Source of the DNA: Hondaea fermentalgiana | Lineage: Eukaryota > Sar > Bigyra > Thraustochytrida > Thraustochytriidae | Length of the DNA: 64,000 nt | Assembly: GCA_014084085.1 (NCBI GenBank) | Contig: NPFB01000019.1 | Location: forward strand, 445,310-509,309 | Direction: 5' to 3' | Part shown: piece after piece, positions 2,355 to 58,151 of the stretch | Position numbering within the stretch: the first letter of the stretch is position 1 | How the letters are laid out: each line of letters starts with the position of its first letter | The notes under the pieces: generated by a model | What the model was told of the DNA's origin: nothing | Seen by the model: the letters and a program-made list of their open reading frames with translations, nothing else | The model's database searches: none | Position numbers and translations under genes: made by a program

Positions 2355-5285
2355 ATGACGCAGCCACCTCTGCCGAGCGGACCGCCGCCGTCCGAAGACG
2401 ACGTGGATCATTCGCCGTGGCGCTTCGTGTCGCGCGTGTCTGCAAAGTTTGGACGCGTGAGCGGCCGGCTCAGCCAGACAGGGTCGAACGGCCAGCGACC
2501 CAGTCTCGCGTCCCTTAACCGCCGCCTGACGCACGTGCATATACCGGGGACACGACGAGAAGACAATGAATATGCCTTTGAGGACTCGGGCGCCTCATCG
2601 GACGAGGAGGACCTCGAAACTGTAGAAGCTGGATCGCTTCCGAGTCATGCAACGAAAGCAAACTTCATGCTTGCCAAAGTCAAGGGAGGCGTAAAAGGAG
2701 CAGGCATGGCGACGGGCCACAAAGTGGCAAACCAGAGGATCCCGCAGCGAATTTGGCTCGCTCTCATCGCCGTCTGCTGGCTGTGGCTAACATCGTACGC
2801 ACTGGCACAGTACATCGTAAACTCGTACATCCCGGTCCCCGACCTAGACTCGGTGTACGACGGAAATACGCTAGCGTATGAAACCTCGGCTGCCGCCCGC
2901 GAGGAGTACGCCGCAGATGTCGAGCGCGTCGCCGACGCTTGCGAGGCGGCCTTTATCCAGGCCAATTTGACGGAAATCGCACGTAGCCAAAGCTATCGCA
3001 CCTACAACGAGAATCAGATCACCTGGCTCGCAGGCAACATTACCTTGATCGAAGCCTACTACAATGTCACACAACTGGCTCTGGACGCGCTCGCAGAGGC
3101 CGGCGATATCGACCTCGCAGAAGGATCGATCTATCGCTCAGACTCTGTCGCAGATGAATGTAAACTCATTTCTAGCATTGTCGCTGGTGAAGAAGCTGCA
3201 ATCAATGCACTAAACAGCGCGAATGAGTACGTTTCGACCACAAACGCAGCGGCCGAGGACCTCGCCTATCAGCTTCAGCGAAAGCGGGAGTACGACACCG
3301 AGTATTATGCAAACAAGACGCAAGACTTGGTAGACTTGCAGGAACAGCTCGTCGCCAGCGTGCACAACATGACAGCGAGTTTCTTGAACATTGGAAGCTA
3401 CTTGGACGAGTTCAAAGAGTGCGTAGTAGCGGACGGATCCTGCGATAGCTCCAGCTCGACGGTTTTCGATAAGCTGTCCAGCATGTACACTTCGGGCTTG
3501 CAGTTCTTCTCTAACATCAAGACTGCTGCATCCAATTACAAGGAGGCAGCTTTGGAACAAATGAACGAGTACAACAAGACCATCATCAGCATCAACGACA
3601 ATCTTGCGTCCATTCAACAACACTTTGGAACCATTAGTGGCATTCCGTCCACATCTGACACAAGCACGCCAAACTTTGACGTGGATAGCTACTCGATGGA
3701 TTCTGTGAGCACCCCGGATGACGTCACGAGTTCCTTCAATGAATCGTATTCGTCGTTGACATCAAACGTGAGCAGTTCAGGAGAAGTCTTTGAGGCTGAC
3801 GCCAATGCGACGCGGGAGAACTCTGTTGGCTGGGAAGAGGGATGGGACGATGACTACAGCCCTGCAGACAACGAAACAGAAACAAACGCAACCGTCGCCG
3901 CGCTTGCATCCTCGGGAGATACGTTCATTTCAAACTTCAGTTCAACACTGAGCTCTATCACCGAAGATGTCGATGAGGATTATGGCGACGTCATTGACTC
4001 GGTCGTATCAACCACCGTCAACGCCACTGTGTCGGCCTCTGATGTTCTTGTTGAACTCACGGACCACTCGTCGTGGGATTTTTATGCGTACAACTCGAGC
4101 ATTATCTCGCAAATCTCGGATGGTTTTCAAGATATGAGCGACCTCATCCTGACCTTCGACACTGTCTTTCGCGTCATGTACACGCTCATCATTATCAACA
4201 AATATTGGTCCCTCACAGGACTTGCAACACCTCCTGGTGATGCTCGCATCAAGGCTGAGTCCGGGGCTGGGTGGGGTCCAAAGAAGACTCTAGTGCAAAA
4301 GCTCGCGGCCATCTTCCTGAACCCGATCTTCATCACCTTGGTGTCGGTGACGGGTGTGTCGTTGGTCCTGTACATGTTTTGGTGGGCTTATAGTCCTCTC
4401 TACTTTGCCTATGTGGAGTCCTGCGTGCAAAATGACTGGCGTGACATCGAGGCAGGCACTGTCAACGGAACGATGCTCTACCGGAATGCATACTCGGTAG
4501 TATTCCAGTACGCATGCGCAACAGGCGATACGCTTGCTCAGACGCGCACAGACGACATTAATGTAGGTCGCGACTTTTTCTGCAGCAAGCAGACGTATGA
4601 CGACACGATCTACTACAACGACCAAGTCGAGCTCTTCGATGACCTCTACGAGCGCTTTGAGTCGACTGTGAATCAAAACGCCGCACTCGTGGAATGCCTG
4701 AATCTGGCCAATATTGATGCTCAAGAAAATACGGATTTCGAGGTTCGTGTCGCGTTAGCCAACTTCGCATACGAATTTGGTCCTCTCACGCAGAGTGCAA
4801 TCTACGATTGCGACAATGTGCAAGGCTGTGATGCTATTCGTGGCAAGGACGAGGTGCAGAGTCAGGCCGAAGGCCCAGACGAAGATCTCTTGCAGTCTGT
4901 CACCTTTGACGCGACTTGCAACAGCGAATACTGGGTCCATGCCAACCTATTTTCGGGTTTCATGGTGATCAGTGTGTACATTATCCTGAACATTTCACGT
5001 ATCACGGGGAGCCGGGCGCTGGTGCGCGTGCTGTGGCGCCAGGTGGTCGTTCGAAATTTTAGTGTCTTTATCAGCGTCACAGATCGCGGTGAGATTATCT
5101 ACCCTGAGCGTGTCACCGAGAAAGGAGACACGATGCAGGAGGCGATTCGATTGGCAGTCAAGAAAGCGATCAAGTCATGGGAGCGTTGGGGCTGGTTCTT
5201 TTTGTTCATGGCCATTTTCATGAATGCCCCTTGGATTTATGCTTTGTGGTATATCTCGTCGACAATCGAGTACTCGAGCTCTTGA
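2355..5285 (+). CDS. Type A multipass membrane glycoprotein (five predicted TM segments), unrecognised family
   Basis: 976 residues, intronless. I do not recognise the family. The N-terminus (1-130) is cytosolic-looking, with proline-rich PLPSGPPPSEDD, a DHSPW motif and an acidic SSDEEDLETVE patch. Predicted membrane segments are near 133-155, 597-618, 652-680, 862-884 and 945-968. Two large loops (about 156-595 and 681-861) carry many N-glycosylation sequons (for example NLT, NIT, NVT, NKT, NMT, NGT) and paired cysteines, so they are probably extracellular or lumenal. A cytosolic loop after TM4 contains YPERVTEKGDTMQEAI. It is closely related to the protein at 10896-13997 and more distantly to those at 5742-8732 and 51466-54615. 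The topology recalls prominins, but I see no sequence evidence for homology. It is convergent with the next gene (456 bp between stops). The start is the first Met and aligns with the paralogue's DHSPW region. Confidence 0.9.
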   Translation: MTQPPLPSGPPPSEDDVDHSPWRFVSRVSAKFGRVSGRLSQTGSNGQRPSLASLNRRLTHVHIPGTRREDNEYAFEDSGASSDEEDLETVEAGSLPSHATKANFMLAKVKGGVKGAGMATGHKVANQRIPQRIWLALIAVCWLWLTSYALAQYIVNSYIPVPDLDSVYDGNTLAYETSAAAREEYAADVERVADACEAAFIQANLTEIARSQSYRTYNENQITWLAGNITLIEAYYNVTQLALDALAEAGDIDLAEGSIYRSDSVADECKLISSIVAGEEAAINALNSANEYVSTTNAAAEDLAYQLQRKREYDTEYYANKTQDLVDLQEQLVASVHNMTASFLNIGSYLDEFKECVVADGSCDSSSSTVFDKLSSMYTSGLQFFSNIKTAASNYKEAALEQMNEYNKTIISINDNLASIQQHFGTISGIPSTSDTSTPNFDVDSYSMDSVSTPDDVTSSFNESYSSLTSNVSSSGEVFEADANATRENSVGWEEGWDDDYSPADNETETNATVAALASSGDTFISNFSSTLSSITEDVDEDYGDVIDSVVSTTVNATVSASDVLVELTDHSSWDFYAYNSSIISQISDGFQDMSDLILTFDTVFRVMYTLIIINKYWSLTGLATPPGDARIKAESGAGWGPKKTLVQKLAAIFLNPIFITLVSVTGVSLVLYMFWWAYSPLYFAYVESCVQNDWRDIEAGTVNGTMLYRNAYSVVFQYACATGDTLAQTRTDDINVGRDFFCSKQTYDDTIYYNDQVELFDDLYERFESTVNQNAALVECLNLANIDAQENTDFEVRVALANFAYEFGPLTQSAIYDCDNVQGCDAIRGKDEVQSQAEGPDEDLLQSVTFDATCNSEYWVHANLFSGFMVISVYIILNISRITGSRALVRVLWRQVVVRNFSVFISVTDRGEIIYPERVTEKGDTMQEAIRLAVKKAIKSWERWGWFFLFMAIFMNAPWIYALWYISSTIEYSSS

Positions 5286-5741
5286 GGCTTTTCAGTTTCT
5301 TTTTCTGTTGTTGTTTATTGTCATCAATTTGTAACTTTGTGTTTTTTGTGTTTTGGTGTTGTCGACGGATGAGGTTCGAAAATGTTTTTTTGTTTTTTTC
5401 CACACAGCTTACTCCTGTCTGCAAAAGAAGAGTCCGGAATCGTGTATGTCTGCTGGCATTTTATTGGGTTCGACGCTGAATGGGGGGGGCGCCGAGGTTT
5501 GTCACGAACGGGGTGAGATTGATCATTGTTCTGGTGTCCTGTGGAATCGGGGGTGTGGCGCTACACCACAGTAAGGATGCATTTCAGTTTGATAATTGGC
5601 CCACGAAAAGAGAACTTCCCAGTATGATCATTGACGTGTCACCCAAATCACTACCACCACCAACAACAGCAATAACAACAACAACAACAACAACAACAAC
5701 ATAAGTTTTGGGGGATGTTTAGTCCTCAAAATGTTAAAAAA
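5286..5741. other. Shared 3' region of two convergent membrane-protein genes
   Basis: 456 bp between the stop codons of two convergent paralogues. It is T-rich just after the + strand stop and contains a CAA trinucleotide run at about 5670-5702. No gene is seen. Both 3' UTRs and poly(A) sites must lie here. Confidence 0.6.
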
Positions 5742-8732
5742 TCACAGATCGCAGATACGATCCGAATCAAAGGCCAGGCTTCGCCGTAGTGTGATGAGAA
5801 TGGCGAACCATGGCACAATGAGTGAGATGCCAAAAAGAGTGATGGCACAGCCGCGGCGCTCAAAGGCGCGAATGGCGATCCGTAGCTGCTTGACAATGAC
5901 CTTGCGAAAAGACTCGCCCTTGACAGTGACATCCTCGGGGTAAATCATGGTGCCGTCTTCCCGGCACGACGCGATAATCGCAAACTTGTGCGAGCTTAGA
6001 TGACGCCAGCTGATCTTTACAATGCCGTTGAGGAAGATCATGCGCGCCAAGTTAGTGGTAATGTAGCCGAGAAGGGCGCAAAAGAAGGTGAGCAGCTCTG
6101 CGTGCAGATACCACTCCATGGTGCACGAGGTATCAAAGGTTACGCCTCGAAGAATAGGTTCGCTGGGCCCTGAGCACTGGAAGTCACAGGGAGCAATCTG
6201 ATCGCAATCGTAGATACGGTCAAGCGAGAGAACCTGCAAATTAAGCGTTTGCAAATACTCTTCGAATGGTGGAAACGTGCGAACGCACGACTCGAGGGCG
6301 CTATCGCGGACCAGATTCGAGAACTCGTCCGTCCAGCCATTGGCGGTTTCAATCGCATCGAAGTCAACACAGCTCCGAAGATACTCGATTTTGCCAGAGA
6401 GATCGGCGGCACGCGTATTGTAGTACTCGAGACGATCATCTTGGTTCAAGCGAAGCGAGATGGAGTCGATCGTGGAGTCACGGCACGAAAGCTCCATGTT
6501 GACTCCAATCGAGTCAATCTCCGTGTTGGCCACGTAGTCTCCATCACTAAAGGCATACTGCTCTGCGAGCGCGTACGAGTTACGGTAGAGCATGGTGCCA
6601 TTAGCAGTAGTGTTGTAGAGGAGTTCACCGTCATTCCCCGTAATGGAGTTCTTAATCTCCACAAAGCACTTATCGACACAGTTATTCGTGTACTCATTGT
6701 AGATGGGGCTGTAGGTGCCGTAAAATGCGGCTCCGAAAAGACCAAGAAAGAGGATGATGATGGCAATGTTGAAGACGGGGTTCGTGAGAATGTTGCCAAT
6801 TTTCTGCATAGGGTTGGCTTTGGCCTGAAAAACACCCGCAGCAATACCGCGCTTGGTGCGGACGTCGGCAGGAGGAGTGTTAATGGCCGAGATATTCCAA
6901 TACTTGCGGATGAGCATAATGGAGCGGAGAATACGGTATGCATAATCGAATGCGAGCGCGAGGTCGTTGACGTCGGTAATGCCGTTGTAGACCTGGTTAA
7001 AGACGTCATCAGAGTAAGAGTAGACGTCAGACCACTCGCGAGGGTCCGCTTTGTTGAGGAGGCTCGCGCTTGCCTCGGAAACGTTCACCTGGGCCTCATC
7101 GATGAACTCTTCGATGCTGCTCGTGCCATTCTCCTCGGACGAAACGGAATCGAGCTCGTCCGCTACGTCACCAACAATCGTGGCCGAAGAGCGTCTCTGT
7201 TCATCAAGAAGGGTCTCGTTGACATAGGGCGGATTATAATCATCAAAGAACACCTGCAGAAGCGCTGTGGTGTTGCCTTCATAGAGAGCGTTGGAAGCAG
7301 CAATGAGGTCTGCTTCCGTGTACACTTGGCTCATGAATCCATTTGCCTGCGCCAACATATCGTCATAGACTTCTTCAGGGTTGGGGTCGACGAGATTCGA
7401 AAGGGAGTCGTACTGCGCGCTCACGAGATTGCCAAGGGAATCAGCAAAGTCGAGAGAGATGCCAGAGACGTAGACCAAGCCTGCAGAGAATCCTGCTGCC
7501 GAGAGGACACCCTGGACGCTGACGCAAAAGTCGTAAAGAGACTGATAATTGGCCATCTTGGCTTCGATAGAATTGCGGTATACGCGGGCCCGGTCGAGCA
7601 TTTCTTCGTATTCGCCCTTCATAGAGTCGAACCGGGTCCGGGCCTTGCCAAAGATGGTTGTCTCAGAGCAGCTCACCGACGCTCCATTTTGTTTTGTATA
7701 GGTACCATCGGTCGAAACGCAGGCCATGAACTCGGAGAAGGACTGGTCGATTGCGTCGATCACGGCCTGCGGGTCTGTGAGGTTCCCTGTGAGGTCGCCA
7801 ACAACGCTGCTAAAGAGATTGTTGGTCTTGTTGTCCATGAATTGAAGGTCATAGAGCGCGCGGGCTGCCAGCTGGTCGCTTAAGCCGTTGACAGTCTCAT
7901 CGGTGGAGCCCTTGTATGCCTCGAGATCGGCGACAGCGCCTGCAGCCAGAGCCTCGCTACTCAGAAACTCGGAGATATCCGTCTCTCCACAGGTTCCGGT
8001 CTCGTCCACATTGCTGGTCACGCTGCTTGCGTCATTGAGCTTTTCGTTGGCATCAATGAAGGCCTCACTGCAGAGGATAACTTCATCCTTGATCTCCTCG
8101 AGGCGGTCCTCGATGGCTGTTTGGATAGTTCGGATGCGATCTTCCTCGTTTGTCTTGTCGCGCGCGAACGAGATGGTGCACTCCTCGGAGACCTCGGTTG
8201 CGCAGGCCTTGTAGGCTGCGCGCTGGTCCTGGGTGATTTCGAACATGCGCTCCGTGGAGTCGCTCACGGTCGCTTGGGTTGGCGTCGGGATGAAGAGGTG
8301 CGTGACCTCCTTGGCGACGACGAGGGAAGTCAGCCAGAGCAGACTGACTGCAAGGGCGCACATGAAGGCGCGCTCGCAGGCATGTTTCTTCCTGATTTGT
8401 TTGTGGACCTGGTTGCCCATACGCTTGACGATATTTCCCTTTTTGTCCTTGACGACCGTGGCGTCTTCGAGCGGGGGCATGTCGTCCGGGTGCGCCATGG
8501 ACGGGGGCCGCGCCTTGAAGAAGGAGCTACCGGGCATGGAGGGGGGTCGCTTGAAGAGTGAGCCACCGCCGCTGCCGGTCATCGAGGGTCGCTTCAGGAA
8601 CGAGCTTGCCTTGCGCGGCGGCGGACCAGCCGGAGTTGGCGGGGTCGCCGTGGGGACCGCCATGGTGAACTCGTCTTCATCCTGCTCCGCGAACGGGTAC
8701 GCCGCCGAGGGCGGCCTTGCCTTGAAAGGCAT
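5742..8732 (-). CDS. Type B multipass membrane glycoprotein with FKARPPS motifs
   Basis: 996 residues from the chosen Met. The ORF is open to a Met at 8789, but the start at 8732 gives MPFKARPPS, matching the MFKARPPS start of the paralogue at 51466. The cytosolic N-terminus has full motifs FKARPPS at 3-9 and 72-78 and reduced forms FLKRPS (45-50) and FKRPPS (60-65). TM1 follows RKKHACERAFMCALAVSLLWLTS; four further membrane segments and two sequon-rich loops follow in the same order as in the type A proteins. Family signatures include NISAINTPPADVRTK after TM2, NGTMLYRNSYALAEQYA and YDCDQIAPCDFQCSGP in loop 2, and IYPEDVTVKGESF in the last cytosolic loop. Function unknown. It is probably the product of an old duplication, followed by inversion relative to its + strand neighbours. 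Confidence 0.88.
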   Translation of the reverse strand: MPFKARPPSAAYPFAEQDEDEFTMAVPTATPPTPAGPPPRKASSFLKRPSMTGSGGGSLFKRPPSMPGSSFFKARPPSMAHPDDMPPLEDATVVKDKKGNIVKRMGNQVHKQIRKKHACERAFMCALAVSLLWLTSLVVAKEVTHLFIPTPTQATVSDSTERMFEITQDQRAAYKACATEVSEECTISFARDKTNEEDRIRTIQTAIEDRLEEIKDEVILCSEAFIDANEKLNDASSVTSNVDETGTCGETDISEFLSSEALAAGAVADLEAYKGSTDETVNGLSDQLAARALYDLQFMDNKTNNLFSSVVGDLTGNLTDPQAVIDAIDQSFSEFMACVSTDGTYTKQNGASVSCSETTIFGKARTRFDSMKGEYEEMLDRARVYRNSIEAKMANYQSLYDFCVSVQGVLSAAGFSAGLVYVSGISLDFADSLGNLVSAQYDSLSNLVDPNPEEVYDDMLAQANGFMSQVYTEADLIAASNALYEGNTTALLQVFFDDYNPPYVNETLLDEQRRSSATIVGDVADELDSVSSEENGTSSIEEFIDEAQVNVSEASASLLNKADPREWSDVYSYSDDVFNQVYNGITDVNDLALAFDYAYRILRSIMLIRKYWNISAINTPPADVRTKRGIAAGVFQAKANPMQKIGNILTNPVFNIAIIILFLGLFGAAFYGTYSPIYNEYTNNCVDKCFVEIKNSITGNDGELLYNTTANGTMLYRNSYALAEQYAFSDGDYVANTEIDSIGVNMELSCRDSTIDSISLRLNQDDRLEYYNTRAADLSGKIEYLRSCVDFDAIETANGWTDEFSNLVRDSALESCVRTFPPFEEYLQTLNLQVLSLDRIYDCDQIAPCDFQCSGPSEPILRGVTFDTSCTMEWYLHAELLTFFCALLGYITTNLARMIFLNGIVKISWRHLSSHKFAIIASCREDGTMIYPEDVTVKGESFRKVIVKQLRIAIRAFERRGCAITLFGISLIVPWFAILITLRRSLAFDSDRICDL

Positions 8733-10895
8733 CGCTCGAGTACGCTCGGGCAAGCAGCCGAGCGAGCGAGCACGCGAGCACGCGAGCACGCTTCGGGCGC
8801 TTTCGTTGCGGCCGGCCAGCCGGCTCGGCGTCCGTCTCGGTTTGAACGCGAATACTGTAGATGTTGAAGTTCAAGCGAACTTGCGCTCAATCAGCCACTG
8901 CCGGCCGCGAGCGAGGCTCTTTGGCAGCAAGGCAAGCACGCGAGGAAGGAAGGCGTGCCAGCGACGCGGAGCGCGGAGCGGAGCGGGCCGCGCGCGCGAG
9001 GTTTGCTCGCTCGCTCGCTCGCTCGCTCGCTCGCTCGCTCCTTCTCTGCACGCGCGTGGTAGTAGTACTATAGGCCCTTGTTGAGAAGGCCTAGTACCAA
9101 GAGCTTTTTGTTTTTATTCTTTTGTTCATGACCGTCAGTCACACAGTCAAGCCCACGCTGGCTGGTTGGCGCAAGTGCGCCTTCCGCGATACCCGACTTG
9201 CAGGCGTGCGTCGCAAGTGGGGAATGTATACCTCTGTTTGTTGCCTGTATGGCTGTCTGTCTGTCTGGCAGCTGGGCGCTGGCGCTTGTGCACGCGCCGG
9301 CTACGTGCCCTCATGATGAGTCCACCTCGACTCCGCGCGTTCGCCTCGGCCTCCTTTCTTGGCAGCTAGCCGCGAAGCTCGCAGCTGTGCTCCTCCTCCG
9401 CGCAGCTGCAGCGTGCCTGCACAGCCTGCCGCTGCTGCACTTCGCCTCGCGAGAGCGAGAGACCGACCACGAGCGACAGCGCCATGACGCCGCTGCCGCC
9501 GTAAATAAAAGACCCGCTTTATTATGCATAAGCGCACACCCCCCAAAACACACACCCTGCCTCACAGTGTGAGACACTGCACGCGCGAAGCCAAAAGCCA
9601 GACAGATGCGCGCTTCTCCTTTCTCTCTCTCTCTCTCCACCACCACTGCTGCTCCTGCGCTGGCTCGGCGGCCGTCGGCCGGCGCAGCCACCCTGGTGAG
9701 GAGCGGCGAGCGCGGTGGCCGCCGCGGAGACTCACAGACAGACAGGGAGACTTCCGCGAGCAGCGGCCTGGCGGGCCGCTCCGCGAGCCGTCTCGGATCA
9801 CGCTCCGGCCCGCTTCGGTCGCGCGCGGCTACGGTGCCCTCCGTCACTGGCGGCGTATAGGTCGCACGGGTTGTCAGTGGCCTTAGTTGGCAGCACAGAA
9901 GCTGCGGGTCCACAGCGCGGTGCACGGCAGGTACGCCCTGGCGAAAGCCGGCGAAGGTGTCGCAGTGGACGCTTGGGGGGCGGAGTCATCTCGCAGACTG
10001 CCACAGCCCGCCGCCCGACTTGGGAGTGAAGCCGGGAGAAAACCAGCGTAGCCGCGTATGCACGCATGCTAATGTGGGAGTACGGTGTGCGGCTAGCACG
10101 CGTCGAGGTAAGTTGAGTAAAAGCGGGGATAATAGGAAAATAGATTTATAGCCGACTTGCACGGTCCTTTTGTAACTGAAGAGCTCGACTCCACTGGCAG
10201 GCCTCCTCACAGCCTCTGCTCCGAAACCACCTCAGTAAAGTCTCCGCCACTGGACTTCAGCATTCCAAAAGAAAAAAAAATTCTAACTGTACCTTGTACG
10301 AGCCGGCCTCGGCCGGCCGGCCCGGAAGTGAAACAAAACGCGCGCATACAGTGCGTGGCGGCGTCGCAAAGTCGGGTAAACGAGGCTGAAAGTAGAGTAT
10401 AGTCCCCGACCGGAGCGGCGCGTGCACGCGTCTTCATACACACCAGTCAAGCCGTGGCCTAGCGATACTTCTATTCATACTAACTACTTCTACCGAGAAG
10501 ATTTCTGCCACCACTATCGGCACAGTCCTGCCTGCAGCATCAGCAGCAGAGTTCAAGAGCGTGGCGCGCGCGAAGAAGCGAGCGGGGGCAAGCGCACTGG
10601 CGCTGCGCGCGACCAGTTCGCTTCGCTTTGGTTTGCGTCGCTTCGCCCGGCGCGGCGCGGCGCGGCTCAGATCGGCTCGGCTCGGCTCGGCTCATCTCGA
10701 CCCATCGCGGGCTCGCGTGCGCGTACTCGGTACGGCGCGCACGCACGCACGCACGCACGGAAAACAGAGCAGCAGCGGCTGCGGCAGCAAAGGCAGCAAA
10801 GGCCAGGCGTAAAAGGTCTCATTGACAGCATACGCGAGCACCGCGGGCGGTGAGACTTGCCTTCTCGAGGCGGTCGAGCGCCAAGGACTCTTTGA
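8733..10895. other. Divergent intergenic region between type B and type A membrane protein genes
   Basis: About 2.2 kb between divergent starts. It contains a GCTC microsatellite (9005-9041), a pentamer GGCTC run (about 10668-10693), an ACGC run (about 10739-10758) and other low-complexity tracts. ORFs up to 204 codons have no recognisable domain. A strong donor-like GAG/GTAAGT at about 10107 and pyrimidine/CAG-rich acceptor-like sequence near 10525-10549 suggest a 5' leader intron for the gene at 10896; this is inference. Confidence 0.45.
9005..9041. repeat. GCTC tetranucleotide microsatellite
   Basis: About nine tandem copies of GCTC/CTCG in the divergent intergenic region. Confidence 0.9.
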
Positions 10896-13800
10896 ATGCC
10901 AACCGCGCCTCGACGGACCACCTGGACGACGAGCAAAGACGGGCAACCCAGCGTCGAAACTGTGAACAATATGTACCGAGCCGAACATGATGGCAGCGGG
11001 CACAACGGCGGGTCGCAGAGAGTAGCCTCGCAAATGCCACGACGACCAACAGCTCCGCCCCCCGCCGCCAGAGCTCCGCCCCCTCTCCCCGCTGGACCTT
11101 TGCCGGAGGAACACGAGGTTGATCACTCGCCATGGCACATGTTTTCCTCGCGTATCTCATCCAAATTCCAGCGCGTGAGCGGCCGCTTGAGCGTGACACG
11201 GCGACCCAGCGCGTTGGGTCGCACGAGCTTCGCTGGCGAAGGAGGTCTACATCTCCCACGCATGTCCAAAATTTTTCATCGCGATGAGCACCACGAGTTC
11301 GCCTTTGAAGAGGAGGGCGCGTCGTCCGACGAAGAGGACCTCGAAACTGTGGAGGCAAGATCGGCCCCGAGCGAAGCCTCAAAATCCAATTTCCTGCTCA
11401 ACAGAGTCAAGGGCGGAGTTCAGGGCGCCGGCATCTCAACGGGCCACAAACTCGCGGATAAAAAAATTGGACAGCGCATCTGGCTGGCCCTGATTGCCGT
11501 CTGCTGGCTGTGGATCACCTCGTACGGCATGGCCAAGGCTATCGTCGAAGCCTACATTCCAATTCCCGCGCTCACCGACGTGTCTGATCGCAATTCGTTT
11601 GCATACTCGACCTCCACGCAGGCTCGGGACGACTACGCGGACGACGTAAATCGTGTCGCGGATGCTTGTGAGGCTGACTTCGACCGAACCTTCCGACTCG
11701 AGGTGCGGCGACGTGACCTCGCCAAGCTATTCAACCAGAATGAGCTCACTTGGTTGATTGGCAACATTACCATTGCCGAGACGAAGTACAACGCGACGCA
11801 GACCGAGCTCTACAGCACCGTCGACATGAACGATGCGAACGTTCGCACGACATCCAATGCAACCGAGTGCCTCCTGATTGACGGCATCGTGGCCGGTGAC
11901 GCTGCCGCCATTAATTCCCTCAATGCTGCCAATGCGTACCGCGCCACTTCAGAGCTGGCAGCCGAGGACCTCGCGTTTCAGATTCAGCGGAAGAAAGAGT
12001 ACGACGAGGAGTACTTTGCCAACAAAACGGACGATTTGCAGTCGCTGCAGTTGATGCTTGTGGCAAGCGTGCACAACACGTCGAATACCTTCGATAACAC
12101 TGAGGGGTTCGCGGAGAGTCTGCGGGCTTGCATGGTGGTTGGTGGCGGCTGTTCCTCCGGTCAATCCATTTTCACCAAGATCCAGGGCACCTTTACGGAG
12201 GCCGAACAGTTCTTTACGAGGCTGACCAATGCACTGGCCGACTACGAGACCAAAGCCCTGGAGCAAATGACCGAGTACAGGAAAACGATCCAAAAGATCA
12301 ACGAACTCAAGGACGACAATCTCGCTGTGTTGGAAGATGCCTTTGGCTCGTTTGGTACCATTCCACCTGAAAGCGATGCGGATACGGATACCATATATTA
12401 CGTGAGCTTTTCTGATACAAGCATCACTGATGTGATTTCGACCTTCCCCGACCTGTACAGCGGTCTCACCTCCAACATCAGTGCGGATGGGACGGTTTTT
12501 GAAGATTCGTCCGAGGCACTCCGATCAAGCTCGACAGGCTGGGAGGCCGGGTGGACCGACGACTACGACCCTCCTGAAGTTGACACGAACGAGACACTTG
12601 CGAACTTGTCCGCAAGTGGCGACAGCTTCTTCACGAACTTCAGTTCCACCCTCAGCGGCCTAACGCCAGACTCCACTGATGATGCGGAGCCCATGCCATC
12701 CGATTCCGTCAACGCTGAGACTCTCAACACCAGTCTTTCCTCTTCCGAGGTCCTCGTCCGACTCACAGATCATTCTTCGTGGGACTTTTACGCTTACGAC
12801 GATTCTATCACACAGGCCGTCTCGGACGGCATCCAGGAGATGAGCGATTTAATTCTCATCTTCGACATCATTTTCCGCATCATTCGCACCTTTCTCATTG
12901 TTCACAAGTACTGGTCACTGACAGGCTTGGCGACACCTCCTGGCGACGCGCGCATCAAGATGGATAATGGCGCCGGCTGGGGACCCAAGAAGACCCCGCT
13001 GCAAAAGATTGCAGCCATTGTGCTCAACCCGATTGTCATTACGATTCTCTCCGTGGTTGCAGTGGGTGTCATCTTTGGCAGCTTTTGGTATGCGTACAGC
13101 CCCCTCTACTACGAGTATGTCGACTCGTGCGTCCAGAACGACTGGCGCGACATCGAAGCTGGCATGGCGAATGGCACCATGCTTTACCGTAACGGTTACA
13201 CGGCCACCTTTCAGTACGCATGCGCAGACGGCGACTCCTTGGCACAGTCGCGCACGGACGACATTAACGTCGGTCGTGACGTCGAATGCAGCAAGCAGAG
13301 TTTCGACGACACAGTGCTCTACAACGCACAAGTGGAACGCTTCAACGAGGCGTACGAGCGTTTCTTCTCGACGGTGAGCCAGAACGCCGCTCTGGTTGAG
13401 TGCCTTGACTTGGCCTACATTGATGGTCTGTACAGTACGGACTTCGAATCCAGCACAGACGATCCTGTCTTCGATCTCACCTTTGGTCCACTTACAAAGG
13501 CCGCAATCTACGAGTGCGACAATGTTGAGGGCTGCGAAGCGATTCGCGGCAAAGACACGGTGCAAAGTCAAGCAGAGGGCCCCGATGAGAATCTTTTGCG
13601 CTCTGTCACCTTTGATGCCGCGTGCTCGAGCGAGTACTGGGTTCATGCCAACCTTTTTGCCGGCATTTCTGTGGTTGGTATTTTCATCATCATTAACATC
13701 TCGCGTATCATTGGAAGCCGTGCTCTGGTTCGCGTTTTATGGCGCATTGTCGTTGTTCGGAATTTCAGCGTTCTCATCAGTGTTACGGATCGTGGAGACA

Positions 13801-13997
13801 TTGTTTACCCCGAGCGTGTCACAGAAAAGGGGGACACGATGCAAGAGGCCATTCGCCTTGCTGTGCGCAAGGCCATCAAGCGGTGGGAACGATGGGGCTG
13901 GGTGCTGCTCGTCACTTCGCTTGTCATGAACGTTCCCTGGATTTGGGCCCTGCACTGGGTCTCCTCCACCATCGAGTACACTTCGGAGGCGGACTAG
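10896..13997 (+). CDS. Type A multipass membrane glycoprotein, paralogue of the protein at 2355-5285
   Basis: 1033 residues as drawn; in-frame Mets at 10971 and 11034 are alternative starts, the latter putting the proline-rich segment near the N-terminus as in the paralogue. It shares with 2355-5285 the DHSPW motif, RVSGRLS, the SSDEEDLETVE acidic patch, TM1 (RIWLALIAVCWLW), two large sequon-rich loops, the segment YWSLTGLATPPGDARIK, loop-2 cysteine signatures (CVQNDWRDIEAG, CDNVEGCEAIRGKD) and the cytosolic YPERVTEKGDTMQEAIRLAV followed by a final TM and a short tail ending EYTSEAD. High similarity over nearly the whole length indicates a fairly recent duplication. Molecular function unknown; it is probably a surface or endomembrane glycoprotein. 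The N-terminus is extended by proline/alanine-rich sequence (TAPPPAARAPPPLP) compared with its paralogue. Confidence 0.9.
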   Translation: MPTAPRRTTWTTSKDGQPSVETVNNMYRAEHDGSGHNGGSQRVASQMPRRPTAPPPAARAPPPLPAGPLPEEHEVDHSPWHMFSSRISSKFQRVSGRLSVTRRPSALGRTSFAGEGGLHLPRMSKIFHRDEHHEFAFEEEGASSDEEDLETVEARSAPSEASKSNFLLNRVKGGVQGAGISTGHKLADKKIGQRIWLALIAVCWLWITSYGMAKAIVEAYIPIPALTDVSDRNSFAYSTSTQARDDYADDVNRVADACEADFDRTFRLEVRRRDLAKLFNQNELTWLIGNITIAETKYNATQTELYSTVDMNDANVRTTSNATECLLIDGIVAGDAAAINSLNAANAYRATSELAAEDLAFQIQRKKEYDEEYFANKTDDLQSLQLMLVASVHNTSNTFDNTEGFAESLRACMVVGGGCSSGQSIFTKIQGTFTEAEQFFTRLTNALADYETKALEQMTEYRKTIQKINELKDDNLAVLEDAFGSFGTIPPESDADTDTIYYVSFSDTSITDVISTFPDLYSGLTSNISADGTVFEDSSEALRSSSTGWEAGWTDDYDPPEVDTNETLANLSASGDSFFTNFSSTLSGLTPDSTDDAEPMPSDSVNAETLNTSLSSSEVLVRLTDHSSWDFYAYDDSITQAVSDGIQEMSDLILIFDIIFRIIRTFLIVHKYWSLTGLATPPGDARIKMDNGAGWGPKKTPLQKIAAIVLNPIVITILSVVAVGVIFGSFWYAYSPLYYEYVDSCVQNDWRDIEAGMANGTMLYRNGYTATFQYACADGDSLAQSRTDDINVGRDVECSKQSFDDTVLYNAQVERFNEAYERFFSTVSQNAALVECLDLAYIDGLYSTDFESSTDDPVFDLTFGPLTKAAIYECDNVEGCEAIRGKDTVQSQAEGPDENLLRSVTFDAACSSEYWVHANLFAGISVVGIFIIINISRIIGSRALVRVLWRIVVVRNFSVLISVTDRGDIVYPERVTEKGDTMQEAIRLAVRKAIKRWERWGWVLLVTSLVMNVPWIWALHWVSSTIEYTSEAD

Positions 13998-47617: not shown

Positions 47618-50026
47618 TCATGACTCCAAACTTTCGATGAGGCAATTGAAATTTCTCTCGCGCGCCGAGGATGTGGAAAAGTCGATCACATTCTCCTGCA
47701 AAAGCCACCCTTGCAGAGCCCCCTTCCATGAGGCTGAGTCCAGCATATCCGCGTCCAGAACCACGGGAATGATTCGCTTGGGGCCAAAGGTATGACAAGC
47801 GACGGTAAAGGCTTGCTTGCAATAATCCGCGCGCCGCTTGTTGACCTCCTTCATGAATCGTCGAGTGACAAAGACCACCGCTTTTTGTGAACGCGCCGCG
47901 CCATTTACAAGCTGATATGAAGCATTGTCAATCAGACGTTCCTCGTCAAACCATGTAAGCTTTCCTGCCTGCACGAGCTTTGTATTGACCTCGCTCACGG
48001 AGTCATGATCAGTGCTGTTGACGCCCCAGTAGTGCACGACAAATGCGTCGAATTCGGCTCGACTTGGAGGAGAGTCGTAACCCTCGTAAAGTCGTCGAGG
48101 ATTGCTTGCACGATTCAAGGATCGCCGTTCGAGCGCAGACTGAGGAGCCTGGAGCTCATTGAGAACTTTATCGAGTTCAGTTTGCCACTCCGCGTACGAG
48201 GTGATACCCAACTGAAGCAGGTCCCCTTCGCTAAGGAGGAAGCACTTTGCTAACGTTCGAATGTCTTCGTCGTAAAAGCGGGTCACGAGCTCCCGAGACA
48301 GCCGCATTTTGCGTAGCAGGAACCTTGCAACGCTAGTCTTGTGAAGAAAATCAAAATACGCCAGAATATCGTCGCGGCCGTTGTTTCTGGCGATATCAAT
48401 AGCGTTATCGCCTTTTTCGTCCCTCAACATGGCATCGGAGCCCAATGTCCACAACAGTTTCACACACTGCAGGGTGTTCTCCTGGTGGACAGACCGGGTA
48501 ACATTCACACCATTGCGACCGCGCGTGTTTCTTTGTCTCCATTGGCGAAAATCGTTATCTTCGTCCATAGCCTCCCACGGTTCATCATCACCGTCCGCCA
48601 ACGAGCAAGCGAGCATGAGCGCCGTTGAGCCATGCTGGTTTTGCGCATTAAGTAAAGCAGTGCCAAATTGAAGTTGAAACCGAGTAAGGTTGATTTGGCC
48701 GAACAAACACGAGAACATCAAGGCCGTATTGCCATCCCGACCCTGCAAGTCCACATTCGCCCCAGACTCGAGCAACAGACCAGCGATCTCATCTTCGCCA
48801 AGCCGGCAGGCCAGCATGAGAGCTGTGTAGCCTTCGACCGCCTTCGTCTCATCATCATCTCCCCCCACCTGCACGTCCATGTTGGCGCCATACTGCAAGA
48901 GTAGCTGTACGATTTCGAGCTGGCCAGCCGCGCATGCTAGCATAAGTGCGTTTAGCCCCTTTGGATGTTTGCTTGGGTTAATGACGGGACCTCGGTCAAG
49001 AAGGACTTGCACAATCGTAGGATCTCCGTGAATGCCGCACGCAATCTCAAGTGCAGATTTACCCTCGCTATCCCGCAACTTCAAGCTTGCGCCGTGGTCG
49101 AGAAGACACTCGATGACTGCAGCATCGTGCCCATTGCTATCGCTGCCAGTGGCTGCAGACACAGTCTTTAAATGCCGCGACTTTAGATTCTGGCACGCAT
49201 ACATTAGAGCAGTGGTACCCGTCTCGCTCTGCAGATCCACATTAGCACCGGATTCTAGAAAAAGGATGATCAAGTCCAACATCCCACTCGCAGATGCAAG
49301 CATGAGTGGAGTGATGTCATCATCTCCCCAGACATCTAGATCTGCACCACGTTCGACGAGGAGCTGAGTTAGTTCTAGCTTGTTCTCCTCCATGCACATA
49401 AAAAGAAAAGCAGTGGCATCATTTCGTGGCCTTGCACCATTCTCAAGAAGAATCTGAGCGCAGCGATATGCTTGAATGGTACTCGCACAGGCGAGAGCTG
49501 TTTCGCCGCTGTATTCATTTTCATAATTAACGTCAGCACCTCGTTTGAGAAGCGCTTCGACGAGAATGGGCCGTCGTTTTAAGCATGCATAGTAGAGAGC
49601 CGTATTTCCCCAAGAATCACTGAGGTTCACATCGGCTCCGAATTCAGTGAGGTAGCTCGCAATTGATGCATTTCTGGATCCATCGCGAATCGAGAGCATC
49701 AATATTGTCATCATGTTCATCGCTGGCGACTGGGCGTTGAGATCAAAGGGCGATGTCTGCATCTTTAGCATGAAAGCCTCTAGATCGTCAGCTGCAATGA
49801 TTTCGAGCATCTCTGGGTCAATTTCGCCGTTGCTCGCGTCGTTTTCTTTCGCGTCATTTTCGTTCGCGTCGTTTTCGTTCGCGTCGTCCTGGTTCGAGTC
49901 GTTCTCGTTCAAGTCATCTTCGCCTGGGTATTCTTTGCTTAGGTATTCTTCGCTTTGCTCTCCCCTGCGATAGTTATACTTCGACCACGCAGATCTCCCT
50001 TCCCGGGCTTGCCTTCTTCTCCGCAT
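47618..50026 (-). CDS. Ankyrin-repeat, SAM-like and TIR-domain protein
   Basis: 802 residues. After an acidic Asn/Asp/Glu-rich start with near-tandem NEND/KEND units (about 38-63), roughly ten or eleven ankyrin repeats cover about 75-545 (for example GNTALYYACLKRRPILVEALLKRGADVN; GYTALMLACRLGEDEIAGLLLESGANVD). A SAM-like helical segment lies at about 566-625 (VARFLLRKMRL ... GDLLQLGI). The C-terminal about 655-800 is a TIR-type domain: EFDAFVVHYWG, LTWFDEERLI, AARSQKAVVFVTRRFM and KRIIPVVLD. The position expected for the NADase catalytic glutamate (after the WFDEERL loop) appears to be Ser/Tyr, so an adaptor rather than enzymatic role is more likely. The basic MRRRRQ start is the first Met; low-complexity frames continue upstream towards the scaffold gap, so the true 5' end is less certain. 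Confidence 0.88.
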   Translation of the reverse strand: MRRRRQAREGRSAWSKYNYRRGEQSEEYLSKEYPGEDDLNENDSNQDDANENDANENDAKENDASNGEIDPEMLEIIAADDLEAFMLKMQTSPFDLNAQSPAMNMMTILMLSIRDGSRNASIASYLTEFGADVNLSDSWGNTALYYACLKRRPILVEALLKRGADVNYENEYSGETALACASTIQAYRCAQILLENGARPRNDATAFLFMCMEENKLELTQLLVERGADLDVWGDDDITPLMLASASGMLDLIILFLESGANVDLQSETGTTALMYACQNLKSRHLKTVSAATGSDSNGHDAAVIECLLDHGASLKLRDSEGKSALEIACGIHGDPTIVQVLLDRGPVINPSKHPKGLNALMLACAAGQLEIVQLLLQYGANMDVQVGGDDDETKAVEGYTALMLACRLGEDEIAGLLLESGANVDLQGRDGNTALMFSCLFGQINLTRFQLQFGTALLNAQNQHGSTALMLACSLADGDDEPWEAMDEDNDFRQWRQRNTRGRNGVNVTRSVHQENTLQCVKLLWTLGSDAMLRDEKGDNAIDIARNNGRDDILAYFDFLHKTSVARFLLRKMRLSRELVTRFYDEDIRTLAKCFLLSEGDLLQLGITSYAEWQTELDKVLNELQAPQSALERRSLNRASNPRRLYEGYDSPPSRAEFDAFVVHYWGVNSTDHDSVSEVNTKLVQAGKLTWFDEERLIDNASYQLVNGAARSQKAVVFVTRRFMKEVNKRRADYCKQAFTVACHTFGPKRIIPVVLDADMLDSASWKGALQGWLLQENVIDFSTSSARERNFNCLIESLES

Positions 50027-51465: not shown

Positions 51466-54400
51466 ATGTTCAAGGCTCGCCCGCCGTCAACCCCGTACCG
51501 TGGCGTCAAGCCCGCGAAGGAGGATGAAAGCGAGCAGGACGACGAGCACATCGAAGGCCATGAGGAGGGCGAGGTCAACGAAACAAATCAGGAACCCGAG
51601 AAACGATCTGGGTTCAAGCTGTTCAAAGCGAGACCACCCTCGACGCCGTACGATGGCCTCGACATGAGAAAGAAACCGAGTGCCCGCAAGAGTTCCGCAC
51701 TAAACATTTTCAAAGCTCGTCCTCCTTCTGGTCCGTACGCAGACGAGGACCCTCTGACCCATAATCCTAGGTTCAAGCCCAAGCTGTTCAGAGCTCGTCC
51801 GCCATCCGCGGCCTTCCCCGCTGATGAGGAATTCGGCCTTCCCGTCGCCACACTCGAGGATGACTCCGATGATGAAGACGAAGGTCGTGCAAGCAAGAAC
51901 ATGAAGAAGCCCAATGTCGCCATTCGCATGAAAACCAGAGTGACCAAGCAAATTCGGAAAAAGCACGCTTGTGAACGTGCCTTCATGTGCGCCTTGGCCG
52001 TAAGTCTGCTCTGGCTGACTTCGCTTGTCGTCGCCAAAGAAGTCACGTACTACTTCATCCCAACGCCGACGGAGGCTTCTGTGGAGTACTCTGTTGAGCA
52101 AAGCGTTCAAGTCACCAAGGATCAGCGGGTTGCATACGAGGAATGCGCCACGGAGGTGCTGGCGTCTTGCGAGGCCACCTTTACGCGCGACGATACAGCT
52201 GAACTCGAACGGATCCAGATCATCCAAGAGGCAATCGCTGAGGAGCTCGAGCGCATCAAAGACGAGATCGTCGCCTGTAGCATCGCCTTCATCAATGCCA
52301 CGGACTGGCTCGATGCTGCAACCACCGCCGGTGCAATTGATAGCTCCAATGTCATCACATCGGGTCCTGCCATTTGCGAGAGTACAGACCTTTCTGAGTT
52401 CATCACATCGGAGGCCCTTGCTGCAGATGCTGTGTCGCAAGTGGAAAACTACCAAAGCGAAGCGGACGAGCAAATCAATAGCCTCTACGACTCAATCTAC
52501 GCACGTTCCGCGTACAACACCGAGTTCATGGATAACCTCACCAACGGCCAATTCTCGGAGATCTCGAGCTCGCTCACGTCGAATCTAACATCTGCATCAG
52601 ATGTCATCGATGCTGTTGACACTCTCTTTAGCGACTTTATGGCCTGTGTATCTCTGGACTCTTCGTACGAGAAACAAGACGGCACAACTGTGCAATGCGA
52701 CTCAACGAGCGTTTTCGGCCAGGCACGCTCTCAGTTCGAAGAGATGGAAAATACTTATCAAAGCCTCCTTGAGGAAGCTCGCTCGTTCCGAGAGTCCATT
52801 GAGGCAAAGATGGCGCGATATCAAGAGCTTTACGACCTAGTGACTCAAATCGTCGGCGTATTCTCCGCTGGAGGTATTTCCATCAACTTGTACCTGTCAA
52901 CCGTTGACCTCGGGTTCACGGATTACTTGGAGAGTCTCGTCGGAGATGCTTTTGACTCTCTCTCTAACCTCATACCCGATCCCGAAGAGATCTACGACGA
53001 CATGGTCGCACAGGCCGAGTCATTCATGGACGATATGTTTGGCGAGGGATCGCTCATCGAAATCTCCAATGCACTTTACGAAGGCAACGCCACAGCCCTG
53101 ACAACGACAATTTTTGATGACTACGACCCACCCTACGTGAACGAGACGCTCTATGAAGAACAGCAAGCGGCTTCTGCAGCTGTGGTCAGCGACGTGGCAA
53201 GTGAGCTGGACTCCGTCACGTCTGAGGAGAATGGCACATCCATTCTAGACGACTTTGTCGAGACCGTGGGAACCAACATTTCTGAGGCCGCAGCAACCTT
53301 GCTTGACAAGGCCGACCCCCGCGAGTGGTCATCTTTTTTCTCATACAGTGACGACATTTTCAATCAGTTCTCGACGGGCATCACTAATGCAAACGACCTC
53401 GCCTTAGCCTTCGATTACGCCTACCGCATCATTTATTCCTTCATGCTCATTCGAAAATACTGGAACATCTCGGCCATCAACACGCCACCTGCAGACGTAC
53501 GCACCAAGGCTGGCATCAAGGCAGGCACTTTTCAAGTCAAGACCAACATGATGCAAAAGGCTGGCAAGCTCCTCGCCAGTCCTGCGCTCGCGATTTTCAT
53601 CATCCTGCTCTTCCTCTGTCTCTTTGGGTATGCATTCTACTACGCGTACAGCCCAATCTACGAAGAATATGTCAACAATTGCGTCGACAAGTGCTACTTT
53701 GACATTCAAAACACGATTCGCGATGACGACGGTAATCTGCGATACGACGCACAGGCCGAGGGCACCATGCTCTACCGCAATGCGTACGTAATTGCCCAAC
53801 AGTACGCCTTTAGCGACGGTGATTACGTGGCGTCCACAGAGGTCGACTCCTTGGGCGTCACAATGGAGCTTTCGTGCAGCAATAGGACTATCACGAGCAT
53901 CCAGAGCCAATCCAATGAGGACGATAAGCTCGACTACTACAACACACGAGCGGACAGTCTTATCCCCAAATTCGAGTATTTGCGCACGTGTGTGGACACT
54001 GCAGCGATTCGAGATGCGCACCCTGAATACGACTTTTCCGAACTGATCTCGGACAGTACCTTGCCCGAGTGCGTGCGCAACTTTTCTTCCTTTGAGACCT
54101 TTCTCGAGACGGCGAGTCTCACCGTGCTTCAGCTTGATCGCACATATGACTGCAACAACATTGCTGCTTGCGACTTTGAATGTTCGGGTCCAAATGAGGC
54201 AATCTTGCGCGGTGTCACGTTTAACACAGCGTGCACGAGCGAATGGTATGCACACGCCGAGCTTTTGTGCTTTTTTTGCGCGATTCTCGGGTACATCACC
54301 TCGAATTTGGCGCGACTCATCTTTCTTAACGGAATTGTCAAGGTCAGCTGGCGTCACCTTAGCTCGCATCGATTTGCCCTCATTGCCTCTTGCCGCGAGG

Positions 54401-54615
54401 ATGGCTCAATCGTCTATCCCGAGGAGGTCACCGAGAAGGGCGAGTCTTTCCGCAAGGTCATTGTGCGCCAGCTGCGCATCGCAATTCGGGCCTTTGAACG
54501 TCGCGGTTGCTTGATCACTCTCTTTGGCATTGCTGTTGTCATTCCGTGGATTGCCATCCTCATTGCCCTCAACAGGAATCTCGGATTCGACTCCGAAAAG
54601 TACTGTGAGACATAG
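51466..54615 (+). CDS. Type B multipass membrane glycoprotein with four FKARPPS motifs
   Basis: 1049 residues. The cytosolic N-terminus carries four full copies of F[KR]ARPPS at residues 2-8, 53-59, 82-88 and 108-114, each followed by a small residue, Pro or Ala, and Tyr/Phe (TPY, TPY, GPY, AAF). Predicted membrane segments: about 171-192 (CERAFMCALAVSLLWLTSLV), 646-667, 704-732, 929-953 and 1015-1035. Two sequon-rich loops (about 193-645 and 733-928) include NGTSIL-type and NLT/NAT/NET sequons, EGTMLYRNAYVIAQQYAFSDGDY and YDCNNIAACDFECSGP. The final cytosolic segment has IVYPEEVTEKGESFRKVIVRQ. It is the closest relative of the protein at 5742-8732, about 43 kb away. Molecular function unknown. 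Confidence 0.9.
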   Translation: MFKARPPSTPYRGVKPAKEDESEQDDEHIEGHEEGEVNETNQEPEKRSGFKLFKARPPSTPYDGLDMRKKPSARKSSALNIFKARPPSGPYADEDPLTHNPRFKPKLFRARPPSAAFPADEEFGLPVATLEDDSDDEDEGRASKNMKKPNVAIRMKTRVTKQIRKKHACERAFMCALAVSLLWLTSLVVAKEVTYYFIPTPTEASVEYSVEQSVQVTKDQRVAYEECATEVLASCEATFTRDDTAELERIQIIQEAIAEELERIKDEIVACSIAFINATDWLDAATTAGAIDSSNVITSGPAICESTDLSEFITSEALAADAVSQVENYQSEADEQINSLYDSIYARSAYNTEFMDNLTNGQFSEISSSLTSNLTSASDVIDAVDTLFSDFMACVSLDSSYEKQDGTTVQCDSTSVFGQARSQFEEMENTYQSLLEEARSFRESIEAKMARYQELYDLVTQIVGVFSAGGISINLYLSTVDLGFTDYLESLVGDAFDSLSNLIPDPEEIYDDMVAQAESFMDDMFGEGSLIEISNALYEGNATALTTTIFDDYDPPYVNETLYEEQQAASAAVVSDVASELDSVTSEENGTSILDDFVETVGTNISEAAATLLDKADPREWSSFFSYSDDIFNQFSTGITNANDLALAFDYAYRIIYSFMLIRKYWNISAINTPPADVRTKAGIKAGTFQVKTNMMQKAGKLLASPALAIFIILLFLCLFGYAFYYAYSPIYEEYVNNCVDKCYFDIQNTIRDDDGNLRYDAQAEGTMLYRNAYVIAQQYAFSDGDYVASTEVDSLGVTMELSCSNRTITSIQSQSNEDDKLDYYNTRADSLIPKFEYLRTCVDTAAIRDAHPEYDFSELISDSTLPECVRNFSSFETFLETASLTVLQLDRTYDCNNIAACDFECSGPNEAILRGVTFNTACTSEWYAHAELLCFFCAILGYITSNLARLIFLNGIVKVSWRHLSSHRFALIASCREDGSIVYPEEVTEKGESFRKVIVRQLRIAIRAFERRGCLITLFGIAVVIPWIAILIALNRNLGFDSEKYCET

Positions 54616-57700: not shown

Positions 57701-58151
57701 CATAGAGAATGAGAGTGCAAATGGCGCCGTCGAGCATTCGCTCGAGACGCACATTGTCCAGGGAACGGGTGCCACAGTCCCAAAACTGGGCACGCATGCG
57801 TGGGCCCGGATCAAAGTCATCAATGTTGGCTACTTGTCCAGCGCCACTCTCCATCAGGTATGCGCTGTCAACTTCGTCATCTTCGTCGCCGTACGAAAGG
57901 CTGCTTCGTGTTCTACGCCTGCGATGATTCGCCGCCGGCACCGCAGGGGTCGGGAGCAGCGCATCCCATATGCGTACGTCGCCACTTTCATGATACGCAT
58001 CTTGGAATGGAAGTCCACTAAAGGCGCGAAGAGCGCTGGTCTTGCCAACAGCTTGCTCGCCGACAACAGCAACTTTGAGGCAATACACCTGTTGAGGCTC
58101 GTGCTGGTTCGCAAGCGTCCAGCTTTGCTGTATCTCACCCTCGGATTCCAT
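54765..58151 (-). CDS. Ras-superfamily GTPase domain fused to a long disordered region and three C-terminal repeats
   Basis: 1128 residues. The N-terminal GTPase domain (about 20-235) has G1 GEQAVGKTS, G3 as WDCGT, G4 as GCKVD (NKxD replaced by CKVD) and G5-like EMSA, with an insertion of about 40 residues rich in basic and acidic runs between G1 and G3. There is no C-terminal prenylation motif. The middle (about 240-670) is disordered, Ser/Arg-rich. Three copies of a ~57-residue module follow at about 681-737, 810-870 and 1067-1124, each of the form V.V.h...G.(I/L)(S/T)V(H/R).GDDP..L...F...(H/F)GL followed by a helix (LHVKVGPGRIGKLTVREGDD; LDVNIGASKMERISVHQGDD). I do not recognise this module with certainty; a beta-strand pair then helix suggests a ubiquitin-like or PB1-like fold. 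It is divergent from the phosphatase gene. Confidence 0.88.
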   Translation of the reverse strand: MESEGEIQQSWTLANQHEPQQVYCLKVAVVGEQAVGKTSALRAFSGLPFQDAYHESGDVRIWDALLPTPAVPAANHRRRRTRSSLSYGDEDDEVDSAYLMESGAGQVANIDDFDPGPRMRAQFWDCGTRSLDNVRLERMLDGAICTLILYDVTDSNSYEQATTRWLDAVRAAAPDKFIVLIGCKVDQSSVRSVEVAEVEEFARDHGLLFMEMSARTHENVDLTLSLLRIRAQHTLNADLHGDLEDDENDDDEEYADHGSYENFHAGAFASKRGSAEHDSAGRGAEPGQSLRSSPRSSRVNSFAHGSRHSQQTSSQRPLSTCSYENEDRLPADDSQGWVPSVGLSLSGTSRQISGSGQEFSPGHADSDEHALTPLSSDAMTISAILGRPSKPSPPATFGVDEYDDSDRGVLARDIENLNVSAGLEVDAPNRNGGGRRTSASKMFGPGDSHVAGLGSASTASVRGPPTESKDEVERLAGTVRSALHLGTDIAQPESLSGSLNDATSAYGQYDRRQEPAHTEVSGLRLHRSGGYTVQHTRPTRNEDERPSEGDRDIERHENGPSAAAGHKTEKQSAADPPRQEARWSRPSRSSVVSAPPASRRFIRPEDMTLHKRSTKSFARKVKDDDDAVENGNVSETSSFGHTHKEGPSRQTGSRDTRQRRASSASSAMHSKGASEATVPEMYVDVNMEGRLVGTISVHRGNDPSALASAFVATHRLKRSMQPKLRRLLHDRMIEFYGTEGLSAPASTTPASSLPSTRSSASKGPGLAHQPSSRRNNNENAVADAVPAPVRRQSQHRVRGLPRSMRPPNGPVIGTLHVKVGPGRIGKLTVREGDDPTQLVEGFRKTFGLRARQAAEIEERVALQLRLHYNSQDDDESKHQGLVTVPETQRLRSRSPHVNESFRAVPESPFGASLSSAASSYSNHGVPVRGLRPQGNLTSTNQSQDFEDLERGASHGANRGVPARAPPPPHVTPPLDPPAPYFDPNEQLPSPVRYPSVLTQRQRELLHATLGWQAAREAEQDQEDERVENDENRGSPALGDMHKAGLRQSKGSLEEFPSFGTQMNQDSAPLFHLDVNIGASKMERISVHQGDDIAMLAQNFAEKHGLSYAKVPRLTFLLEEKLLLHTRDR

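What the first reader, a model, noticed from the sequence alone, without database searches (positions are those of the whole stretch)
2355..13997. Cluster of three large paralogous glycoproteins with two ectodomains and five membrane segments
Three neighbouring genes (+, -, +) encode about 1000-residue proteins sharing cytosolic N-terminus, TM1, large sequon-rich loop, TM2-TM3, second Cys-containing loop, TM4, conserved cytosolic segment and TM5. I recognise no named family. The order of two large loops between TM pairs recalls prominins, without visible sequence homology. A family restricted to this lineage and expanded in a cluster would be a good candidate for a new surface or membrane-organising system.
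Basis: partly seen in the sequence, partly recalled or inferred. Interest (0 to 1): 0.75.

Follow-up and report, generated by a model that had tools for sequence, protein, structure and literature searches.

The report
Paired slime-net two-ectodomain pentaspan proteins
Four related genes, in what is likely a slime-net protist (labyrinthulomycete), encode predicted five-pass membrane proteins with two large outer domains; no relative among named protein families was found, and they would likely work in A/B pairs to organise the cell's outer membrane network.

Summary
The window has uninterrupted paralogues A1 (2355-5285 +), B1 (5742-8732 -), A2 (10896-13997 +) and a fourth, B2 (51466-54615 +); a fifth, divergent copy lies on contig C223. 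With ten database relatives they form a 15-member family: class A (5), class B (8), two outliers. Predicted layout: cytosolic N-tail, TM1, ectodomain 1 (434-460 aa), TM2-loop-TM3, ectodomain 2 (179-234 aa, five invariant Cys), TM4-loop-TM5. This 1+2+2 pattern is not prominin's 2+2+1, and Pfam, NCBIfam, PDB-sequence and Foldseek searches gave no credible relative. New here: A and B genes are neighbours in the window and, inferred from equal contig lengths, on three other contigs; all 8 class B tails, and none of the 7 others, carry an RPPS motif; cytosolic loops are more conserved than ectodomain 1. I infer an A/B surface complex, anchored by its tail, that shapes or tethers ectoplasmic-net membrane. 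Function is untested and the fold unresolved (pLDDT 64). Lineage restriction rests on searches with limited recall; the only relative listed with an organism name is from Thraustochytrium.

The parts
2355..5285 (+). A1, class A pentaspan paralogue, 976 aa
2748..2810 (+). A1 TM1 (predicted signal anchor)
   Evidence: hydropathy
2811..4130 (+). A1 ectodomain 1 (EC1), 14 sequons, acidic
4131..4205 (+). A1 TM2 with invariant Asp and Arg
4206..4322 (+). A1 cytosolic loop 1 (KYW..TPPxDxR), 82% identical to A2
4323..4385 (+). A1 TM3
4386..4943 (+). A1 ectodomain 2 (EC2) with the five invariant Cys and GTMLYRN motif
4944..5006 (+). A1 TM4
5007..5192 (+). A1 cytosolic loop 2 (YPExVTEKG), 90% identical to A2
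5193..5255 (+). A1 TM5
5742..8732 (-). B1, class B pentaspan paralogue, 996 aa
8379..8732 (-). B1 predicted cytosolic N-tail with three RPPS motifs
10896..13997 (+). A2, class A pentaspan paralogue, 1033 aa (possible start at Met123)
51466..54615 (+).
51466..51969 (+). B2 predicted cytosolic N-tail with four RPPS motifs
52036..53394 (+). B2 ectodomain 1, predicted long helices
52813..52965 (+). B2 stretch (residues 450-500) with the Gly-rich hydrophobic loop, most hydrophobic part of EC1
53395..53463 (+). B2 TM2 (charged; assigned by alignment, AF2 helix and parity)
53635..54258 (+). B2 ectodomain 2 with the five invariant Cys
54328..54507 (+). B2 cytosolic loop 2

Best explanation
The window holds four uninterrupted paralogues, two of class A and two of class B, of a predicted five-pass membrane protein with two large Cys-bearing outer domains, and A and B likely assemble into a surface complex that would shape or tether the membrane of the ectoplasmic net. 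Shown by the calls: the four genes, the A/B split, the conserved Cys, the well-kept sequence of the predicted cytosolic loops, the class B RPPS tail motif, and A/B adjacency in the window. Predicted: topology, glycosylation and long helical ectodomains. Inferred: A and B bind each other through the membrane (each TM2 has an invariant Asp-Arg pair) and EC2; the RPPS repeats dock a cytosolic partner in several places at once; EC1 reaches outward to a neighbouring membrane or substrate. The site, the ectoplasmic net, is inferred from apparent lineage restriction only.
For: Pairing: A1 and B1 stop codons lie 456 bp apart and B1/A2 starts 2163 bp apart. For 3 of 3 class A relatives from outside this genome, a class B relative has the same longest-contig length (17902, 45545, 9494). 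Multivalent tail: RPPS in 8 of 8 class B tails (1-4 copies), 0 of 7 others, 0 copies in the rest of the 15 proteins; a genome-wide FKARPPS codon pattern had 4 hits, 3 in B1/B2 and one out of frame with a long ORF elsewhere, none for its backward control. Inside kept, outside freer: A1/A2 cytosolic loops 82 and 90% identical, EC1 50%, EC2 73%; B1/B2 74 and 85%, EC1 54%, EC2 63%; over the family EC1 has the lowest mean identity of 11 regions within class A (0.38) and within class B (0.35). Five Cys in EC2 are invariant in 15 of 15, a sixth in 14 of 15. Asp and Arg in TM2 are invariant in 15 of 15. The one relative listed with an organism name is Thraustochytrium sp. LLF1b; its label is of a transcriptome project (recalled), so a member is likely expressed. 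Labyrinthulomycetes produce an ectoplasmic network of anastomosing wall-less filaments (passage of PMC6492006).
Against: No experiment, expression or localisation datum ties the family to the net. A/B adjacency may be only an old tandem duplication. The three outside pairs are inferred from equal contig lengths, not seen, and 3 of the 6 outside class B relatives (P0010, P0014, P0015) have no such partner in the lists. The net-candidate list for Aurantiochytrium limacinum (section 9 and Table 1 of PMC12221091) has 18 proteins; I could not tell whether any is of this family, and no relative labelled with that species came up. Models are weak (mean pLDDT 64, pTM 0.44 and 0.41). Single RPPS copies in P0010, P0011 and P0015 are also reached by 4, 27 and 73 of 2000 shuffles.
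Confidence: 0.35

Rival explanations
1. They are likely surface receptors or adhesins: EC1 would bind substrate or prey and the conserved cytosolic loops and tail would pass on the signal; pairing and membrane shaping are incidental.
For: EC1 has the lowest mean identity of 11 regions within each class and the cytosolic loops are well kept; EC1 sequons exceed shuffles, 109 against 65.8.
Against: No Pfam family over its cut-off in the members whose rows I saw and none shared by more than 2 of 15; five passes are more than an adhesin needs.
Confidence: 0.25
2. They would work like fungal Prm1: a disulfide-stabilised two-loop protein at contact sites that helps outer membranes fuse, here for joining of net filaments.
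For: Two extracellular loops with functional Cys, and a hydrophobic stretch in loop 1, are described for Prm1 (passages of PMC2868043). In 6 of 8 class B members a Gly-rich loop holds the most hydrophobic 19-residue window of EC1. The net anastomoses.
Against: The loop is not the most hydrophobic window in 4 of 5 class A members, in P0014, in P0012 (by one window) or in P0016; a fifth pass has no place in the Prm1 layout (recalled); no Prm1 sequence was at hand to compare.
Confidence: 0.13
3. A channel or transporter: four of the passes with N-terminus inside and two outer loops recall connexin, innexin or LRRC8 (recalled), and TM2 carries an invariant Asp and Arg.
For: TM2 Asp and Arg invariant in 15 of 15.
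Against: No channel family among the 23 weak Pfam matches of the 15 members; ectodomains of 434-460 and 179-234 residues are far larger than those of such channels (recalled).
Confidence: 0.12
4. A strongly diverged prominin/Tweety relative with a shifted membrane pattern.
Against: Predicted TM order 1+2+2, loop lengths, and no prominin or Tweety match in any of 15 members. A separate ORF of the same genome (P0017) has a weak Tweety match and no profile similarity to this family.
Confidence: 0.1

Closest known systems
Prominin (CD133) and Tweety homologues
   Same: Five membrane passes, two outer loops, predicted long helical ectodomain; prominin 1 and Ttyh1 bend membranes and make vesicles (PMC11405016, abstract and passages seen).
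   Different: 2+2+1 pattern, outer loops over 300 aa, cytosolic loops under 25 aa as curated there, against 1+2+2, EC2 179-234 aa, cytosolic loops 33-34 and 48-60 aa here; no Pfam match.
Fungal Prm1
   Same: Two extracellular loops with functional Cys, a hydrophobic stretch in loop 1 (PMC2868043, passages seen).
   Different: Here a fifth pass, five invariant Cys in loop 2, two gene classes and an RPPS-bearing tail; sequence not compared.
Patched/Dispatched/NPC1 (RND) proteins
   Same: Two large outer domains (recalled).
   Different: Five assigned passes here, not twelve (recalled); no Pfam match.
Ectoplasmic-net candidates of Aurantiochytrium limacinum
   Same: Labyrinthulomycete proteins without clear homologues elsewhere, several with predicted membrane segments (PMC12221091, section 9 read in full).
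   Different: None of the 18 is described there as a five-pass two-ectodomain protein; three are described only as having transmembrane and extracellular parts; sequences were not compared.

Membership tests
Prominin | five passes in a 2+2+1 pattern | tested here: not met
   predicted 1+2+2 with cytosolic N-tail; TM2 of class B is the least certain pass
Prominin | both outer loops over 300 aa | tested here: not met
   EC1 434-460, EC2 179-234 aa in 15 members
Prominin | two small cytosolic loops, under 25 aa | tested here: not met
   33-34 and 48-60 aa in 15 members
Prominin | sequence similarity (PF05478) | tested here: not met
   0 of 15 members list it at E up to 10, where HMMER's filters drop most above about 0.1; 0 matches in the genome at E 0.001
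Prominin | shared fold | tested here: inconclusive
   weak models; searches
Tweety | sequence similarity (PF04906) | tested here: not met
   0 of 15 members list it at E up to 10, same filter caveat
Tweety | shared fold | tested here: inconclusive
Prm1 | sequence similarity to fungal Prm1 | not tested
Prm1 | intermolecular disulfide dimer needed for fusion | not testable with these tools
   needs non-reducing gels and Cys mutants
Patched/RND | twelve passes (recalled) | tested here: not met
   4-6 hydropathy peaks in the 15 members, five passes assigned

The most novel reading that the evidence does not exclude
A two-subunit, labyrinthulomycete-specific membrane machine with a membrane topology of its own builds the ectoplasmic net: class B holds the cytosolic scaffold by repeated RPPS motifs and inserts a Gly-rich hydrophobic loop into the opposite membrane, class A covers the surface, and together they draw out and join net filaments.
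Probability: 0.15. Interest if true: 0.85.

Novelty: new variant of a known kind. Interest (0 to 1): 0.5.

Why it matters
The ectoplasmic net is a structure found in one group of marine protists; a 2025 proteome study lists 18 candidate proteins for it, none experimentally tested (PMC12221091, section 9 read). A large, constrained, paired membrane-protein family with no relative found would be a concrete target for knock-out and localisation, and a new example of the two-ectodomain multi-pass layout.

Full report
What is there. Searches of the window's genome with A2 and with B2 found the same five places: the four genes and an ORF of 900 codons on contig C223 (P0009, 24-25% identical). A sixth match with B2 (E 0.11, two stops inside) I take for noise.

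The family. Two protein searches brought in ten relatives: class A P0006, P0007, P0008; class B P0010 to P0015; and the outlier P0016. P0005 is A2 with a later start and was dropped from the counts. With the five of this genome that makes 15. The tree separates five class A (100/100) from eight class B (96/97); P0009 and P0016 sit on long branches and are not placed. B2 groups with P0010 (98/98) apart from B1, so B1 and B2 appear to have split before this organism and the source of P0010 did. Only one relative carries an organism's name in the listings: P0014, Thraustochytrium sp. LLF1b, a labyrinthulomycete.

Layout. Hydropathy, loop charge and sequons, conserved Cys and an AF2 model point to: cytosolic N-tail; TM1; EC1 (434-460 aa); TM2; cytosolic loop of 33-34 aa; TM3; EC2 (179-234 aa; five Cys invariant in 15 of 15, a sixth missing only in P0016); TM4; cytosolic loop of 48-60 aa; TM5; short outer C-tail. 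The weak point is TM2 of class B, whose Asp and Arg keep it under the hydropathy cut-off; parity and the class A members argue for it. Sequons do not discriminate cleanly: they are enriched in EC1 (109 against 65.8) but not in EC2 (31 against 29.5), and the two predicted cytosolic loops (8 against 2.5 and 6 against 1.3) and TM4 (10 of 15 members, at its inner end) also exceed shuffles. P0016 lacks the acidic outer loops of the others.

Constraint. Synonymous sites are saturated between A1 and A2 and between B1 and B2, and non-synonymous change is lower. The cytosolic loops are well kept (74-90%) and EC1 is not (50-54%), though the order is not perfect: in A1/A2 TM3 (43%) is below EC1, in B1/B2 the N-tail (48%) is below EC1 and TM1 (100%) above the loops. 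Over the family EC1 has the lowest mean identity of the 11 regions within class A (0.38) and within class B (0.35). I read this as a fixed inner contact and a freer outside.

The class B tail. RPPS occurs in 8 of 8 class B tails (1, 1, 1, 2, 2, 2, 3 and 4 copies) and in none of the seven others. In 2000 shuffles of each tail the observed number was never reached for the five tails with two or more copies, and was reached 4, 27 and 73 times for the single copies of P0010, P0011 and P0015. A codon pattern for FKARPPS had four hits in 36 Mb, three in B1 and B2 and one out of frame with a long open frame elsewhere, and none for its backward control; a second pattern for the wider motif had two hits, both in B1, but its backward control also had two. 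I read the motif as a docking site.

A/B pairing. In the window A1 and B1 are tail to tail, B1 and A2 head to head, and B2 lies 37 kb beyond A2. For each of the three class A relatives outside the genome a class B relative shows the same longest-contig length; if the 9494-base ones are one contig, the two genes fill about 5.8 kb of it. I did not see those contigs. Of six outside class B relatives three (P0010, P0014, P0015) have no such partner in the lists.

Hydrophobic loop. In 6 of 8 class B members the most hydrophobic 19 residues of EC1 fall in one Gly-rich stretch (P0012 misses by one window, P0014 by 22); so they do in P0006 (class A) and P0009, not in the other four class A members or in P0016. 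Its place at a hairpin tip is a guess from helix order in a weak model.

Comparison. Prominins are curated in PMC11405016 (passages) by a 2+2+1 pattern, outer loops over 300 aa and cytosolic loops under 25 aa. All three fail here as predicted. Pfam lists neither prominin nor Tweety for any of the 15 members. Folds could not be compared reliably. Prm1 (PMC2868043, passages) is closest in layout from the outside, but no sequence was at hand.

Verdict. A real, constrained, so far unnamed family; most likely surface proteins working as A/B complexes; net function is a hypothesis. The text searches made listed no paper on it, in a library that lacks most subscription journals.

Noticed in passing
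window 47621-50026 (-): Ankyrin-repeat protein with a C-terminal TIR-like stretch (TIR_2 E 1.2e-5, 26.2 bits, cut-off 28), possibly a protist TIR protein.
   Followed up: partly
L016 148-4314 (-) (contig C237): A 1388-codon ORF with a weak Tweety match over its first membrane segment (E 0.0015, under the cut-off) and, by eye, a 2+2+1 membrane pattern: a possible prominin/Tweety-class protein of the same organism.
   Followed up: partly
L017 6282-8984 (+) (contig C223): Fifth, divergent member of the family (P0009), without the RPPS tail, near an ORF on the other strand that by eye resembles trehalose-phosphate synthase.
   Followed up: partly
window 54768-58151 (-): Ras/Roc-type GTPase with a long extra tail, next to B2.
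   Followed up: no
window 60524-62149 (+): Pepsin-type aspartic protease (PF00026, E 8e-88) with a His-rich, by eye possibly membrane-anchored C-terminus.
   Followed up: no
G000 contig C161, about 228305-242563: Open frame of 5708 codons with several ketosynthase-like repeats, possibly a large polyketide synthase.
   Followed up: no
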